From: Verrucosispora sp. WMMD573
GTDB lineage: Bacteria; Actinomycetota; Actinomycetes; Mycobacteriales; Micromonosporaceae
Assembly (NCBI RefSeq): GCF_027497175.1
Contig: NZ_CP114901.1
Span: 6,262,001 to 6,326,000, forward strand
Length of the DNA stretch: 64,000 nt
Direction of reading: 5' to 3'
A model generated the notes under the pieces. That model searched no databases and was not told where the DNA came from. It saw only the letters and a program-made list of their open reading frames with translations. The position numbers were made by a program, and so were the translations under genes. Within the stretch, counting starts at the first letter, position 1. Each line of letters begins with the position of its first letter. Positions 1 to 42,423 of the stretch are shown here, piece after piece.

Positions 1-15
1 CAACCTCATGATCAA
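1..15. repeat. Right arm of a TTGATCATGA hairpin cut by the window edge
   Basis: The first bases read CAACCTCATGATCAAC, which matches the right arm of the intergenic hairpins at 13649, 28124, 36553 and 42310. The left arm lies outside the window. Like the other copies it is followed at once by a G-rich tract, with five runs of at least three G between 18 and 46. I infer that it is the fifth member of the family. Confidence 0.6.
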
Positions 16-12391: not shown

Positions 12392-13618
12392 ATGAGTCGC
12401 ATCGACGTCGTCGTCACCGGGCTCGGCGCGACCACCCCGCTGGGCGGGGACGTCGCGTCGACCTGGGACGCCATGCTCGCCGGCCGCTCCGGGGTGAGTC
12501 CGCTCGCCCAGGAGTGGGCCGCGCAACTGCCGGTCCGGATCGCCGCCCAACTCGCGGTCGATCCGGCCGGCCTGTTGGACCGGGTGAAGCTGCGCCGGTT
12601 GGACCGTTCCGAGGCGATCGCGCTGATCGCCGCCCATCAGGCATGGTCGGACTCCGGCCTGGCCGACTCCGGGCTCGACCCGGAGCGGCTCGGGGTGAGC
12701 GTCGGCTCGGGCATCGGTGGGGCGCTGACCCTGCTCGCCCAGGACGACATCCTGGAGGCGTCCGGTCCACGGCGGGTCTCCCCGCACACCATCCCGATGC
12801 TGATGCCGAACGGCCCGGCCGCCTGGGTCGGCCTGGAGTTGGGCGCCCGTGCGGGCGTGCACTCGGTGGCCAGCGCCTGCGCCACCGGCGCGGAGGCGAT
12901 CGCGCTCGGCCTGGACATGATCCGTGCCGGCCGCGCCGACGTGGTGGTGGCCGGCGGCACCGAGGCGGTCATCCACCCGCTGCCGATCGCCGGCTTCTCC
13001 TCGATGCGGGCGATGTCGACCCGCAACGACGAGCCGGAGCGGGCCTCCCGACCGTGGGACAAGGGCCGCGACGGCTTCGTGCTCGGCGAGGGCGCGGGCG
13101 TCGTCGTGCTGGAGCGCGCCGACCACGCCGCCGCCCGGGGTGCCCGGGTGTACGCGAGGCTCGCCGGGGCTGGCATCACCTCCGACGGCTTCGACATCGT
13201 CCAGCCGCACCCGGAGGGTGCCGGCGCGATCCGGGCGATCGCGAAGGCGATCTCCGACGCGGACGTGGCGAAGTCCGACATCGTCCACGTCAACGCGCAC
13301 GCCACCTCGACCCCGGTGGGCGACCTGGCGGAAATCACCGCGTTGCGGACCGCGTTGGGCGACCACCCGGTGCTCACCGCCACCAAGTCCATGTCCGGTC
13401 ACCTGCTCGGCGCGGCCGGCGCGCTGGAGTCGATCGCCACCATCCTGACGATCCGCGACAGCGTGGTGCCGCCGACGATCAACCTGGACGACCCGGACGA
13501 CGGTCTCACCCTGGAGGTGGCGGCCAACAAGGCACGGCACATGGACGTGCCCGCCGCGCTGAACAACTCGTTCGGCTTCGGCGGTCACAACGTGGCACTC
13601 GTCTTCACCCGCCCCTGA
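12392..13618 (+). CDS. fabF: 3-oxoacyl-ACP synthase II
   Basis: This 408-residue KAS II elongates acyl-ACP. The active cysteine lies in SVASACATGAEAI (about 163) and the two histidines in VNAHATSTPVGD and TKSMSGHLLGAAGA. The C-terminus ends NNSFGFGGHNVALVF as in the family. Two bases separate it from acpP. It is the last gene of the operon and is followed by a TTGATCATGA hairpin. Confidence 0.95.
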   Translation: MSRIDVVVTGLGATTPLGGDVASTWDAMLAGRSGVSPLAQEWAAQLPVRIAAQLAVDPAGLLDRVKLRRLDRSEAIALIAAHQAWSDSGLADSGLDPERLGVSVGSGIGGALTLLAQDDILEASGPRRVSPHTIPMLMPNGPAAWVGLELGARAGVHSVASACATGAEAIALGLDMIRAGRADVVVAGGTEAVIHPLPIAGFSSMRAMSTRNDEPERASRPWDKGRDGFVLGEGAGVVVLERADHAAARGARVYARLAGAGITSDGFDIVQPHPEGAGAIRAIAKAISDADVAKSDIVHVNAHATSTPVGDLAEITALRTALGDHPVLTATKSMSGHLLGAAGALESIATILTIRDSVVPPTINLDDPDDGLTLEVAANKARHMDVPAALNNSFGFGGHNVALVFTRP

Positions 13619-13648
13619 GCCGCCCCCCTCACCCCCCTCAGCCCTTGC

Positions 13649-13705
13649 TGATCATGAGGTTAGCGGCAGTTTGAAGATCAACTATTGCCGCTAACCTCAT
13701 GATCA
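13649..13705. repeat. TTGATCATGA-type intergenic hairpin
   Basis: Perfect 20-base arms (TGATCATGAGGTTAGCGGCA at 13649-13668 and its complement at 13686-13705) enclose a 17-base loop containing GATCAA. The element lies between the converging fabF and GH3 genes. C-rich sequence (13620-13643) precedes it, and a G-rich tract (13721-13752) follows and runs into the GH3 stop. It may act as a two-way terminator. Confidence 0.8.
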
Positions 13706-13728
13706 ACTGTGCAGGAGCGCGGGTGGGG

Positions 13729-21794: not shown

Positions 21795-21928
21795 TGCCGG
21801 CGGCGACCGCCGCCTAATCGCCCGCCAGGGGCGAACCGGGGAACCATGTTCCTGGGGTGTATCCGCGCCAGCGGTAGGGATCTTCCGTCCCGAACCCGTC
21901 AGCTAACCCGGTCGGCGGCTGACGGAAG
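21795..21928 (+). promoter_or_regulatory. c-di-AMP (ydaO/yuaA) riboswitch
   Basis: The leader of the coiled-coil wall protein contains the conserved ydaO aptamer blocks in order: CCGCCTAATCGC, GGGGAACC, CTGGGGTGTATC, GGTAGGGATCTTCCGTCC, CGAACCCGTCAGCTAACC, then CGGCTGACGGAAGGA running into the ribosome binding site. In actinobacteria this riboswitch commonly controls secreted cell-wall hydrolases and resuscitation factors, and the gene here fits that. The block matches are seen directly; ligand and control direction come from knowledge of the family. Confidence 0.85.
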
Positions 21929-21937
21929 GACATGTGC

Positions 21938-27559: not shown

Positions 27560-28117
27560 ATGACCGATCAGCTGACCACACCCCTACAGGTCACTGCGCG
27601 ACTCCGTACACCCGTCACCGAGCACGACCACATCCGTGGTCCGCTGGACGCGCCGGTGACGATCGTCGAGTACGGCGACTTCCAGTGCCCCTTCTGCGGC
27701 CTCGCCCACGCCAATCTGACGGAGGCGCTGCGGCAGCGCGCCGACACCGTCCGCCACGTCTACCGTCACTTCCCAATCACCAACATCCACCCGTACGCCG
27801 AACGGGCCGCCGAGGCCGCGGAGGCCGCCGGGCGGCGGGGTCAGTTCTGGGAGATGCACGACTGGCTCTACGAGCACCAGGACCAGTTGGATCCGGTGCA
27901 CCTGACGCTCGGTGTCGAACAGCTCGGCCTGCCGGTCCACGAGGTGGAGGCGGAGATCGGACGGCACGCCCACGGCGACCGGATCCGACACGACTTCGTC
28001 GGCGCCATCCGCAGCGGGGTCGACGCCACCCCGACCCTCTTCATCAACGACATCCGCCACAACGGCGACTTCGCCCCACCCACCCTCCTCACCGCCATCG
28101 ACACCGCCAACCCCTGA
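27560..28117 (+). CDS. DsbA-like thioredoxin-fold protein
   Basis: This 185-residue protein has a thioredoxin fold with the CPFC active site in VEYGDFQCPFCGLAH and the cis-proline region GVDATPTLFIND. It lacks a signal peptide, so it is a cytoplasmic oxidoreductase of the DsbA/FrnE type, also seen fused to NhaA antiporters in actinobacteria. It stands between the BON gene and the large LuxR regulator, in an area that looks stress related. Confidence 0.87.
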   Translation: MTDQLTTPLQVTARLRTPVTEHDHIRGPLDAPVTIVEYGDFQCPFCGLAHANLTEALRQRADTVRHVYRHFPITNIHPYAERAAEAAEAAGRRGQFWEMHDWLYEHQDQLDPVHLTLGVEQLGLPVHEVEAEIGRHAHGDRIRHDFVGAIRSGVDATPTLFINDIRHNGDFAPPTLLTAIDTANP

Positions 28118-28123
28118 GCCCTC

Positions 28124-28184
28124 GTTGATCATGAAGTTGTTGTGCCCCGCCGCGGGGTGGCGCGACAACAACTTCATGATCAAC
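28124..28184. repeat. TTGATCATGA-type intergenic hairpin
   Basis: Arms GTTGATCATGAAGTTGTTGT (28124-28143) and its complement (28165-28184) are perfect over 20 bases. The loop holds a GC-rich inner hairpin (CCCCG/CGGGG) in place of the GATCAA loop of the other copies. It lies between converging genes and is followed by G runs at 28193-28209. Confidence 0.8.
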
Positions 28185-35265: not shown

Positions 35266-36543
35266 ATGCTCGACATGGAGTTGATCCGGAAGGATCGCGA
35301 CGCGGTGGCGGCCGCGCTGGCGAAGCGGCTCGACGCCGCCGAGGTCGACCGGGCGCTGGACGATATCCAGCAGCTCGACCGGGAGCGCCGCCGGCTGATC
35401 AGTGAGATCGACGGGGAGCGTCAGCGCCGCAAGGCCGAGGCGCGGGCGTACGCGCAGGCGAAGCGGGCCGGTGTCGAACCGCAGGTCACCTCCGACGACG
35501 GCCGGAAGCAGGTCGCCGAGCTGGAAGCGGAACTCGACGAGGTGCAGACGCGGCTGCGTACCACCATGAGCGAGTTGCCCAACCTACCCGCCGAGGACGT
35601 GCTGCCCGGCGGCAAGGAGGCCAACCGGGTGGTGAAGACCTTCGGTGCGCCACCCGCCATCGAGAAGGTCCGCGACCATGTCGAGCTGAGCCGGATGCTG
35701 GGTCTGGTCGACCACGAACGCGGCGTCAAGCTCGGCGGCTCCGGCTTCTGGATGTACACCGGGCTGGGCGCCCGGCTGGAGTGGGCGCTGATCAACTGGC
35801 TGATCGAGCGGAACATCGAGGCCGGGTACGAGTTCCTCCTGCCGCCGCACCTGCTGCTGGACAGCGCCGGCTTCGCCGCCGGCCAGTTCCCCAAGTTCTA
35901 CGACGACGTCTATCACCTGGACAAGCAGTCCGCGCCGCGCGGGCAGTTCCTGCTGCCCACGGCGGAGACGGCGATCCTCGGCGCGTACCAGGACGAGATC
36001 CTGGAGACCGCGAAGCTGCCGCTCAAGGTGTTCGCGTACACCCCGTGCTACCGGCGCGAGGCGGCCGGCTCGCACTCCGACGAGCGAGGCACCGTGCGGG
36101 GTCACCAGTTCAACAAGGTGGAGATCTTCCAGTTCACCCTGCCAGAGCAGGCCGCCGCGGCGCTGGAGCAGATGGTCAGCCACGCGGAGAGCCTGGTCGA
36201 GGGGTTGGGTCTGCACTACCAGCGCAGCCTGCTCGCGGCCGGTGACTCCAGCGCGTCGATGCGCAAGACCCTCGACATCGAGGTGTGGATGCCCAGCACG
36301 GGCAAGTACAAGGAGGTCTCGTCGGTCTCCTGGGGCGGTGACTACCAGGCCCGCCGGGCGGCGATCCGCTATCGTGAGCCGGGCGGCAAGCAGACCCGCT
36401 TCGTACACACCCTCAACGGCTCCGCCCTGGCCACCAGCCGCCTCCTCCCGGCCATCCTGGAACAGTTCCAGCAGCCCGACGGCTCGGTCCTGGTCCCCGA
36501 AGTCCTCCGCCCCCGCCTCAACACCGACCGCCTAACCCCTTAA
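35266..36543 (+). CDS. serS: Seryl-tRNA synthetase
   Basis: This 425-residue class II synthetase begins MLDMELIRKDRDAVAAAL and has the long N-terminal coiled-coil arm (about 30-110) that binds tRNA-Ser. Motif 2 is CYRREAAGSHSDERGTVRGHQF and motif 3 lies in LNGSALATSRLLPAILEQFQ. The length is normal. No tRNA or T-box leader is seen upstream. It is followed by a TTGATCATGA hairpin. Confidence 0.96.
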   Translation: MLDMELIRKDRDAVAAALAKRLDAAEVDRALDDIQQLDRERRRLISEIDGERQRRKAEARAYAQAKRAGVEPQVTSDDGRKQVAELEAELDEVQTRLRTTMSELPNLPAEDVLPGGKEANRVVKTFGAPPAIEKVRDHVELSRMLGLVDHERGVKLGGSGFWMYTGLGARLEWALINWLIERNIEAGYEFLLPPHLLLDSAGFAAGQFPKFYDDVYHLDKQSAPRGQFLLPTAETAILGAYQDEILETAKLPLKVFAYTPCYRREAAGSHSDERGTVRGHQFNKVEIFQFTLPEQAAAALEQMVSHAESLVEGLGLHYQRSLLAAGDSSASMRKTLDIEVWMPSTGKYKEVSSVSWGGDYQARRAAIRYREPGGKQTRFVHTLNGSALATSRLLPAILEQFQQPDGSVLVPEVLRPRLNTDRLTP

Positions 36544-36552
36544 CCCACTCGT

Positions 36553-36613
36553 GTTGATCATGAGGTTAGCGGCAGTTTCAGAGATCAATAATGCCGCTAA
36601 CCTCATGATCAAC
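36553..36613. repeat. TTGATCATGA-type intergenic hairpin
   Basis: This is the best copy: 22-base perfect arms (36553-36574 and 36592-36613), beginning GTTGATCATGAGGTTAGC, with a 17-base loop containing GAGATCAA. It lies between the converging serS and TlpA-like genes. Five G runs (36614-36648) follow immediately and reach the stop codon of the TlpA-like gene. Confidence 0.85.
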
Positions 36614-40691: not shown

Positions 40692-40749
40692 TTGACAGAC
40701 GTTGAAATCGGCTTGTAACCTTTCTGAAATTTTCAGTCCCGGTTGCAAG
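40692..40749 (+). promoter_or_regulatory. Promoter and nested dyad before the first amylase
   Basis: TTGACA (about 40692) is a perfect -35 box, with TGTAAC about 16 bases on as a possible -10. The -10 overlaps a nested dyad: outer arms CTTGTAACC and GGTTGCAAG (8 of 9 pair) surround inner CTGAAATTTTCAG (40724-40736). The half-site TTGCAAG is the reverse of CTTGCAA, close to the CTTGCAG heptamer before the second amylase. It is probably an operator for sugar-responsive repression. Confidence 0.5.
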
Positions 40750-40802
40750 GTCCGGGCAGCCCGCACCACTTCCCCCGTCCCCCGGCACCCCTGGAGCACC
40801 CG

Positions 40803-42251
40803 ATGCATCGACGTCGACTCCGCCCGGCGATCGTCGCCCTCGCCCTGATCGCCGGGCTCCTCGCCCCCGGCGTGGCGACCGCACCCCCGGCGGCCGCCAC
40901 CCCCAGTGGCGGCAAGAAGGTCATCGCCAACCTCTTCGAGTGGAACTGGCCCTCGGTCGCCAGCGAGTGCAACAGCACCCTCGGCCCGAAGGGCTACGGC
41001 TTCGTCCAGGTGTCACCACCACAGGAGCACGTACGCGGCAACCAGTGGTGGGTGGCCTACCAGCCGGTCAGCTACCGGATCGAGTCCCGCAAGGGCACCC
41101 GCGCGCAGTTCAAGTCCATGGTCGACACCTGTCACGCGGCCGGCGTGAAAGTGATCGTCGACGCGGTCATCAACCACATGTCCGGCCAGGACAACGGTGG
41201 GACCGGCTGGGCCGGCTCGACCTACCAGCACCACGTCTACCCCGGCATCTACCAGTCGCAGGACTTCCACTACTGCGGGCGCAACGGCAACAACGACATC
41301 GCCAACTACAACGACCGCTACGAGGTGCAGAACTGCGAGCTGGTCAACCTCTCGGACCTGAAGACGGAGTCCGACTACGTCCGCTCCCGGCTGGCCGCGT
41401 ACCTCAATGACCTGCTGTCGCTCGGAGTGGACGGTTTCCGGCTGGACGCCAGCAAGCACATGCCGGCGGCCGACATCGCCAACATCCGCAGCCGGCTCAA
41501 CCGGTCGGCATACATCGTGCAGGAGGTCATCTACGGCGCGGGCGAGCCGATCACACCGAACGAGTACACCGGCAACGGTGACGTGCACGAGTTCCGCTAC
41601 GGCAAGGACCTGGCCCGGGTGTTCCGCTCCGAGCGGCTGGCGTACCTGCGCAACTTCGGCGAGGGCTGGGGCCACCTGCCCAGCGGCGTGTCCTCGGTCT
41701 TCGTGGACAACCACGACACCCAGCGCGACGACGGGGGCGTGCTCACCTACCGCGACCGGGGCATCTACGCGCTGGCCAACGCGTTCATGCTGGCCTGGCC
41801 GTACGGCTCCCCGACGGTGATGTCGAGCTACACCTTCAGCAGCCGCGACGCCGGCCCACCCTCGGACGGCAACAACAAGACGCGCAACACGGTCTGCTAC
41901 TCCGGCTGGGAGTGCGAACACCGCTGGCCGGTGATCGCGAACATGGTCGGCTTCCGCAACGCCACCGAGGGCGCCGCAGTCAGCAACTGGTACGACAACG
42001 GCAACAACCACATCGCCTTCAGCCGCACCGGCCGGGGCTTCATCACCATCAACGACGAGGGCTCCGCGATCAACGGCCGCTCCTACTACACCGGACTCCC
42101 GGCCGGCCGCTACTGCGACGTCATCCACGGCACCTTCACCAACGGCACCTGCTCCGGACCGGTCGTCACCGTCGACGCCAACGGCTGGTTCGCCGCCAAC
42201 ATCCCCGCCCACGACGCCATAGCCCTCCACCAAAACGCCCGCCTCCCCTAA
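40803..42251 (+). CDS. Secreted alpha-amylase, GH13
   Basis: This 482-residue enzyme has a signal peptide (ending APPAAATPSG) and a GH13 catalytic domain. The catalytic residues are in GFRLDASKH (nucleophile Asp), IVQEVIYG (acid/base Glu) and VDNHDTQR (transition-state Asp). The N-terminal VIANLFEWNWPSVASEC is typical of actinomycete amylases. It lacks a starch-binding domain, unlike the second amylase at 56954. The ATG at 40803 gives a clean signal peptide. Confidence 0.92.
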   Translation: MHRRRLRPAIVALALIAGLLAPGVATAPPAAATPSGGKKVIANLFEWNWPSVASECNSTLGPKGYGFVQVSPPQEHVRGNQWWVAYQPVSYRIESRKGTRAQFKSMVDTCHAAGVKVIVDAVINHMSGQDNGGTGWAGSTYQHHVYPGIYQSQDFHYCGRNGNNDIANYNDRYEVQNCELVNLSDLKTESDYVRSRLAAYLNDLLSLGVDGFRLDASKHMPAADIANIRSRLNRSAYIVQEVIYGAGEPITPNEYTGNGDVHEFRYGKDLARVFRSERLAYLRNFGEGWGHLPSGVSSVFVDNHDTQRDDGGVLTYRDRGIYALANAFMLAWPYGSPTVMSSYTFSSRDAGPPSDGNNKTRNTVCYSGWECEHRWPVIANMVGFRNATEGAAVSNWYDNGNNHIAFSRTGRGFITINDEGSAINGRSYYTGLPAGRYCDVIHGTFTNGTCSGPVVTVDANGWFAANIPAHDAIALHQNARLP

Positions 42252-42300: not shown

Positions 42301-42309
42301 GGCCCGCGT

Positions 42310-42366
42310 TGATCATGAGGTTATTGCCCAGATTGGAGATCAAAAAGGGCAATAACCTCATGATCA
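42310..42366. repeat. TTGATCATGA-type intergenic hairpin
   Basis: Perfect 20-base arms (TGATCATGAGGTTATTGCCC at 42310-42329 and its complement at 42347-42366) with a 17-base loop holding GAGATCAA. The inner stem differs from the other copies but is matched on both sides. G runs follow at 42372-42400. It lies between genes in the same direction, amylase and transpeptidase. Confidence 0.8.
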
Positions 42367-42423
42367 CGCTTGGGGTGAGGGGGAAAGGGGGTAGAAGGGG
42401 TTGTTTAGGGTTATTGTGGGTAG

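What the first reader, a model, noticed from the sequence alone, without database searches (positions are those of the whole stretch)
36553..36613. Family of intergenic hairpins with TTGATCATGA ends and covarying stems
Four complete copies (13649, 28124, 36553, 42310) and one half copy (1) share the end (G)TTGATCATGARGTT, while the inner stem changes (TAGCGGCA, TGTTGT, TAGCGGCA, TATTGCCC) and its partner changes with it. Three copies have a 17-base loop holding (A/G)GATCAA, a third copy of the end half-site. Three lie between converging genes. The covariation means the folded or cruciform structure is kept by selection or copying. It may be a two-way terminator, a REP/MITE-like element or a protein site.
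Basis: partly seen in the sequence, partly recalled or inferred. Interest (0 to 1): 0.78.

Follow-up and report, generated by a model that had tools for sequence, protein, structure and literature searches.

The report
Palindromes paired with a homing-type nuclease
Short mirror-image DNA elements, nearly always 59 letters long, sit just after many genes of a soil bacterium, and the same elements bracket the gene of a DNA-cutting enzyme that probably recognises and spreads them, which looks like a so far undescribed counterpart of the known REP repeat systems.

Summary
The window (a Micromonospora genome, G000) holds four complete 59-bp palindromes and half of a fifth; the genome holds at least 77, and relatives across the order carry them at genome-specific lengths (59, 60, 70 bp). 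They lie a median 29 nt after stop codons, mostly between convergent genes, flanked C-rich left and G-rich right, and rarely share a site with an ordinary hairpin.

Main new result: a partner. Genes for an AbiEi-type DNA-binding protein fused to a Vsr/homing-endonuclease-like domain are bracketed by matching palindromes in 13 of 19 cases tested (10 by program, 3 by eye). Different paralogs have different palindrome families; within the 59-bp family, nuclease lineage matches arm/loop class. Of 1863 control genes, 4 were so bracketed, 2 of them this nuclease.

Elements change in place: same site, other subfamily, or inverted. G-U and A-C mismatches are equally common, so the covariation need not mean RNA selection.

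Best reading: a REP/RAYT-like two-part system with an unrelated nuclease that cuts palindromes and lets repair copy them; at gene ends they serve as two-way 3'-end hairpins. Binding, cutting and termination are inferred, not shown.

The parts
1..15 (.). right end of a complete 59-bp palindrome cut by the window edge (G000:C1:6261957-6262015)
13648..13706 (.). 59-bp palindrome, class A loop, 29 nt after the fabF-like gene 12392-13618 (+), convergent
28125..28183 (.). 59-bp palindrome, class B-like loop, 7 nt after gene 27560-28117 (+), convergent; no element at the orthologous site of G197
36554..36612 (.). 59-bp palindrome, class A loop, 10 nt after serS 35266-36543 (+), convergent; among 30 Micromonospora serS loci only the own one shows a 59-bp element as best hairpin
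42309..42367 (.). 59-bp palindrome, class B arms with class A loop, 57 nt after gene 40743-42251 (+), tandem; at the same site G197 has a 59-bp element with CAAGA ends

Best explanation
The palindromes are the dispersed half of a two-part system. The other half is a chromosomal protein made of an AbiEi-type DNA-binding part and a Vsr-like/homing-endonuclease-like nuclease domain; its gene is usually bracketed by two palindromes of the matching family (the own copies lie outside the window, at about 489 kb and 1625 kb). Shown: near-fixed length and conserved ends, place at gene 3' ends, the bracketing, agreement of nuclease lineage with palindrome class inside the 59-bp family, replacement of one subfamily by another at the same site, inversion in place. 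Inferred: one protein molecule binds each arm (AbiEi proteins bind 23-bp inverted repeats; those of Rv2827c are 13 bp apart, a span of 59 bp), the nuclease domains cut near the loop motif, and repair from another copy or from the other arm rewrites the element. Copies persist at gene 3' ends because there they act as two-way 3'-end hairpins (terminator, or barrier to 3' exonucleases), probably helped by C-rich, Rho-site-like flanks.
Against: No binding, cutting or termination data. 6 of 19 genes are not bracketed on both sides by a match, and 3 of the 13 rest on degenerate or partly seen copies judged by eye. Three of the six genes read in G047, G248 and G289 were chosen because an element lies next to them. 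Adjacency by coordinates alone is only modestly above chance in each genome. The 5' copy could simply be an autoregulatory operator. Several bracketed genes are orthologs, so not independent. 60- and 70-bp brackets do not group with the 59-bp clade. One own 59-bp-bracketed nuclease is frameshifted. No U-tract.
Confidence: 0.6

Rival explanations
1. Global operator: the AbiEi-nuclease protein only binds the palindromes as a regulator or chromosome organiser; the nuclease part is unused, and the sites spread by ordinary recombination.
For: AbiEi proteins bind inverted repeats as autorepressors (passages of PMC3985639, and PMC7319586); one bracket lies 5' of each bracketed gene.
Against: The other bracket lies 3' of the gene; the acidic residues E208, D241, E252 and D254 are invariant in 39 homologs; elements lie after genes, 13 of 214 in divergent regions, unlike operators.
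Confidence: 0.2
2. Plain two-way terminators: hairpins kept by selection on RNA pairing; likeness between copies comes from recombination, and the nuclease link is accidental.
For: 3'-end place, exclusion of other hairpins, strong RNA folds, other hairpins at orthologous sites.
Against: G-U and A-C mismatches equal, 49 to 46; near-fixed length and loop register; no U-tract; bracketing of the nuclease.
Confidence: 0.13
3. REPIN moved by a RAYT-type Y1 transposase.
For: Two conserved inverted ends, fixed spacing and a compensating spacer hairpin resemble REPINs (passages of PMC3116915).
Against: No Y1_Tnp match in the own genome; 32 of 121 family genomes have one and element-rich genomes such as G012, G026, G140, G154 and G003 do not. 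No solo half-sites.
Confidence: 0.03
4. DNA uptake sequence that pairs up in terminators.
For: In Neisseria and Pasteurellaceae uptake sequences often form terminator hairpins (passages of PMC1852404).
Against: Of 88 half-site 14-mers in 864 kb of own sequence 2 are not in a detected element, one at the window edge and one in a 61-bp copy.
Confidence: 0.01

Closest known systems
REP/REPIN with RAYT (REP-associated tyrosine transposase)
   Same: Many dispersed intergenic palindromes; conserved inverted ends, fixed spacing, compensating inner changes; enzyme gene bracketed by two palindromes of its own type; enzyme and palindrome vary together (passages of PMC3116915 and PMC2817692).
   Different: Enzyme is AbiEi plus Vsr-like nuclease, not a Y1 transposase; no GT(A/G)G head; no solo half-elements; placed at gene 3' ends rather than at random between genes.
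AbiEi antitoxin/autorepressor and its operator (AbiE system, Rv2827c)
   Same: N-terminal part has the AbiEi fold; inverted-repeat sites of similar span (23-3-23 bp, and 23-13-23 bp).
   Different: Extra nuclease domain; sites dispersed at gene 3' ends, not only in its own promoter. A partner toxin gene was not searched for systematically.
Vsr-like homing endonucleases (I-Bth0305I)
   Different: No intron or intein host; the element is a solo palindrome and the gene need not travel with it (inferred).
U-lacking or I-shaped terminators and trimmed Rho-dependent 3' ends of GC-rich bacteria
   Same: Strong hairpin shortly after the stop codon, no U-tract, C-rich upstream (passages of PMC8269248).
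   Different: Conserved ends, near-fixed length and loop motif; elements are 39-58% GC while their flanks are about 75%.

Membership tests
REP/REPIN-RAYT | Y1 transposase (RAYT) gene in the genome, flanked by the repeats | tested here: not met
   PF01797: 0 matches in G000 at E 1e-5
REP/REPIN-RAYT | GT(A/G)G head at the palindrome | tested here: not met
   Ends read GTTGATCATGA..TCATGATCAAC in the listed copies; the head is described in PMC2817692
REP/REPIN-RAYT | Two inverted conserved ends, fixed spacing, compensating changes | tested here: met
REP/REPIN-RAYT (as a way of working) | Enzyme gene bracketed by two palindromes of its family | tested here: met
   With another enzyme: 13 of 19, control 4 of 1863
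Canonical intrinsic terminator | U-tract after the hairpin | tested here: not met
   13 of 316 with 3 or more U in 8 nt
Terminator or 3'-end hairpin in general | Hairpin just after stop codons | tested here: met
   Median 29 nt, 289 of 316 within 100 nt
Terminator or 3'-end hairpin in general | Transcripts end there | not testable with these tools
   No RNA data
AbiEi-type operator | Inverted repeats of fixed geometry next to an AbiEi-fold gene | tested here: met
   geometry from PMC7319586
AbiEi-type operator | Bound by the protein | not testable with these tools
   -
Homing endonuclease system | Homing-endonuclease fold | tested here: met
Homing endonuclease system | Cuts alleles without its own copy | not testable with these tools
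   -
DNA uptake sequence | Very many solo copies | tested here: not met
Rfam family | Match to a curated RNA family | tested here: not met
   Window at gathering threshold: only a riboswitch elsewhere; 14 loci at E 0.1: one weak match far below its gathering score
MITE of a larger transposon | Target duplication, related full transposon | tested here: inconclusive
   No solo half-sites; the clearest presence/absence pair differs by more than the 59 bp; no systematic transposon search

The most novel reading that the evidence does not exclude
A new class of selfish or domesticated element: palindromes that home into palindromes. An AbiEi-fold protein has gained a homing-endonuclease domain; it cuts its cognate palindromes at gene 3' ends, and repair copies them from elsewhere or from their own other arm, so each genome's set of 3'-end hairpins is rewritten to the type its nuclease recognises. 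Many actinobacterial proteins now labelled 'type IV toxin-antitoxin AbiEi' or 'DUF559' would belong to it.
Probability: 0.5. Interest if true: 0.92.

Novelty: new variant of a known kind. Interest (0 to 1): 0.8.

Why it matters
If true, it gives a function to a common protein group that is now named after a toxin-antitoxin system, and a mechanism by which whole sets of 3'-end hairpins are kept alike and replaced. It would be a second, apparently independent invention of the palindrome-plus-enzyme arrangement known from REP/RAYT, so open questions about such systems (why at gene ends, selfish or useful, how copies stay alike) become testable with an unrelated enzyme. It also shows that near-perfect stem covariation can come from DNA-level copying and is not by itself proof of a functional RNA.

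Tried and rejected
No use: the sequence itself in papers (88 papers hold one of the strings, the 20 listed are unrelated); themed paper searches, whose listings show no paper on these palindromes or on a link of DUF559/AbiEi-nuclease proteins with palindromes (only the top rows were seen; most subscription journals are not held). Viral contigs: no element, no nuclease relative (102). Nuclease relatives: none in plasmids (100, query own 1624827) or phages (101, query G055). Genes next to own elements share no family (80 genes, one weakly similar pair).

Rejected or weakened: RAYT (40); uptake sequence (72); arms exchanged while the loop stays, as a rule (9 switched pairs, loop likeness no better than chance, p 0.85; single pairs such as L091/L109 look like it); flank pairing as a general longer stem (only position 1 and a few long runs exceed composition). 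The first site comparison (111 of 120) was biased, because targets had been fetched for carrying an element; so is the set of 38 and 35 sites. Loop strand bias (B 15:5, p 0.04; A 19:17) is not used. The depleted stretch was chosen after seeing the positions. Lenient hits ignored by eye: L110:5725.

Full report
1. What is in the window. Four complete 59-bp palindromes and half of a fifth. The end motif is far above chance (11 against 0.53). The genome has 52 copies with exact ends and none for the backwards control. A covariance model of 41 copies lists 77 distinct sites in its 150 rows; more exist (e.g. L177:18939). Of 153 matches in 136 records 138 are exactly 59 bp.

2. Range. Exact ends occur in 26 of 61 relatives, all in the own genus; the model finds copies also where exact ends are absent (G003, G012). 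It hits 50 of 121 genomes and 20 of 44 genera of the family at E 1e-3, 37 of 150 in the order at E 1e-5, 21 of them in other families, and 3 of 246 across the phylum at E 1e-6, one outside the order (stricter filters). In the listed rows length is genome-specific: G055 nearly all 59 bp, G047 60, G289 70, G248 59 and 70, G209 61-62. The end TTGATCATG recurs there (GTGATCATG or CTGATCATG in G289 and G209), the arms differ, and the loop core CGACACGC recurs in G055, G047, G289 and one G248 copy, not in the 59-bp G248 copies or the G209 copy.

3. Anatomy. Ends TTGATCATGARGTT, arms that vary but stay complementary, and a loop whose motif has an exact register: TYGATCT starts at position 25 or 26 (class A), CACGCCG at 25 or 26 in 48 of 49 (class B). 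74 and 51 of 214 loops carry them against 0.55 and 1.7 after shuffling; 14 are class C and 75 have none of these. The half-site practically never stands alone: own 2 of 88, G197 1 of 83, G126/G106 0 of 28.

4. Place. In 864 kb of own sequence, fetched around elements, 32 of 61 are convergent, 23 tandem, 4 divergent, 2 overlap a called gene; of 443 intergenic regions 91 are convergent (p 6e-7). Over the loci held, 265 distinct elements, 51 dropped (overlap or edge), 214 classified: 115 convergent, 86 tandem, 13 divergent; stop-to-element median 29 nt. Genes come from a simple codon-usage script, so single calls can be wrong. The 30 nt upstream are 59% C and 20% G, against 40% and 34% at 3' ends without an element, and the C-rich/G-rich pair is present in all four orientations. 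In convergent regions another hairpin is found in 2 of 31 with an element and 33 of 74 without (p 9e-5).

5. Sites over time. At the serS site of 30 Micromonospora loci (best hairpin within 200 nt): 1 has the 59-bp element (own), 15 have shorter hairpins, 4 a 70-89 bp palindrome of CGATCTTGCA type or similar, 1 a doubtful one, 9 none. At the fabF site of 30 family loci only the own one shows it. In G197, whose flanking genes are about 95% identical, 17 own elements map to stretches held for two contigs; the script scored 11 element, 3 other hairpin, 3 none. One of the none is a degenerate element, so 12; one of the 12 lies in a stretch that I had chosen for its element, leaving 11 of 16. Of the 12, 7 are another subfamily (CAAGA instead of CATGA ends), 6 of 11 without the chosen one. 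In 32 orthologous pairs, a set chosen around elements, 9 have switched arms with unrelated loops. 4 of 18 comparable pairs are inverted in place, one of the 4 doubtful; the clearest has 20 of 21 loop bases identical after inversion; loop and whole-element inversion cannot be told apart. G-U and A-C mismatches in tandem copies are 49 and 46. This fits template switching between arms, proposed as a maker of compensating changes in PMC8794818 (abstract and outline seen).

6. The partner. In G055 the gene between two elements 1.1 kb apart gives weak Pfam matches to AbiEi, DUF559 and MTES_1575; the gene between two own elements is its relative. In the loci held 12 such genes were found; 9 lie next to 59-bp elements, and L179, L316 and L351 next to other palindromes. 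In six genomes 42 genes match at E 1e-5, split rows of two broken own genes counted once. I tested 19: own 7 of 7, G197 5 of 5, G055 1 of 1, G047 2 of 4, G248 2 of 13, G289 2 of 12. Matched on both sides: 4, 3, 1, 2, 1, 2, in all 13. Ten are by program; three rest on my eye: G197 C22:27306 (3' copy degenerate), G197 C22:258950 (5' copy cut by the stretch), G248 3335127 (3' copy half). Not matched: own 942409 and its G197 ortholog C28:44090 (5' side only), own 4087017 (none), own 1914767 (broken gene, decayed 3' copy), G197 C17:354218 (unclear), G248 1498098. Of the six read in G047, G248 and G289 three were picked for a neighbouring element; of the other three, two are bracketed. Families at the brackets: 59/60/70-bp TTGATCATG, 77-bp CGATCATGCA, TTCGGGGAAG, GGGTACGTTTCTTGTC, GATCWTGGTCCG, GACTGAGTAGAGATCGACG, CGATGTCGGGGACATCGG. 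Dispersed copies elsewhere are shown for the first three only; GGGTACGTTTCTTGTC occurs only as the two brackets in the stretches held.

7. Control. Of 1863 genes 4 have palindromes sharing an arm 9-mer on both sides; 2 are this nuclease (five such genes lie in these loci), one is flanked by two 59-bp elements, one by a duplicated 39-bp hairpin (p 3e-5). Adjacency to a listed element by coordinates alone is weaker: expected 0.02-0.13 genes per genome, observed 1-2, p 0.007-0.09.

8. Lineage match. The 8 nucleases with 59-bp brackets in the tree, including G055, form one clade, 100/98; those with 60/70-bp TTGATCATG brackets lie elsewhere, one on a long branch. A-type nucleases (L110, L053, L129, L105, own 489104) have class A brackets, 9 of 9 elements; B-type (L020, L098, own 1624827) class B arms, 6 of 6, 5 of 6 by loop; some are orthologs. 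G197 has one clade member, bracketed by CAAGA-type copies as far as seen, and at least 29 of its 55 copies have that end, while at least 53 of 62 own copies have CATGA.

10. Mechanism, with odds. Nuclease and palindrome belong together, about 0.9; nuclease acts on the palindrome, 0.75; rewriting by cut and repair, 0.6; 3'-end hairpin role, 0.6. AbiEi binds 23-bp repeats 3 bp apart, Rv2827c 23-bp repeats 13 bp apart (passages); the span of 59 bp is a lead, not a test.

11. Comparison. It works like REP/RAYT (passages) but is not a member: RAYT and GT(A/G)G head were tested and not met. No paper on the pairing showed up in the listings of my ten searches.

Noticed in passing
window 21801-21933 (+): c-di-AMP riboswitch, 88.8 bits, gathering score 38.
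   Followed up: no
G000 3.70-5.75 Mb: 5 of the 77 listed sites fall in this 2.05-Mb stretch, about 24 expected (stretch chosen after looking). It may be the less conserved part of the chromosome.
   Followed up: no
L239, L242, L262 (serS site); L087; G197 stretches: A 70-89 bp palindrome family with CGATCTTGCACTTT ends sits at the same kind of site; 7 paired copies in 1.2 Mb of G197, 1 in 864 kb of own sequence. Its nuclease was not identified.
   Followed up: partly
L180:17088, L205:4516, L209:3769, L193:11168: Another repeated palindrome with CCTTTGCTCTGCTTCA ends, about 71-125 bp, 6 paired copies in own stretches.
   Followed up: no
L177:9617, L015, L012 flanks: Long C-rich/G-rich simple tracts beside elements differ strongly between own and G197 although the genes are about 95% identical.
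   Followed up: partly
L321:2401 (G197) against L181 (own): Element present in G197 and absent in own; the difference is larger than 59 bp, so there is no clean insertion boundary.
   Followed up: partly
G000:C1:489104-490041: The own A-type nuclease gene reads in two frames (frameshift), while class A elements remain numerous.
   Followed up: no
G197: Contig C21 is 521,288 bp, the length of FOLJ01000002.1 (Verrucosispora sediminis CGMCC 4.3550), so G197 is probably that strain.
   Followed up: no
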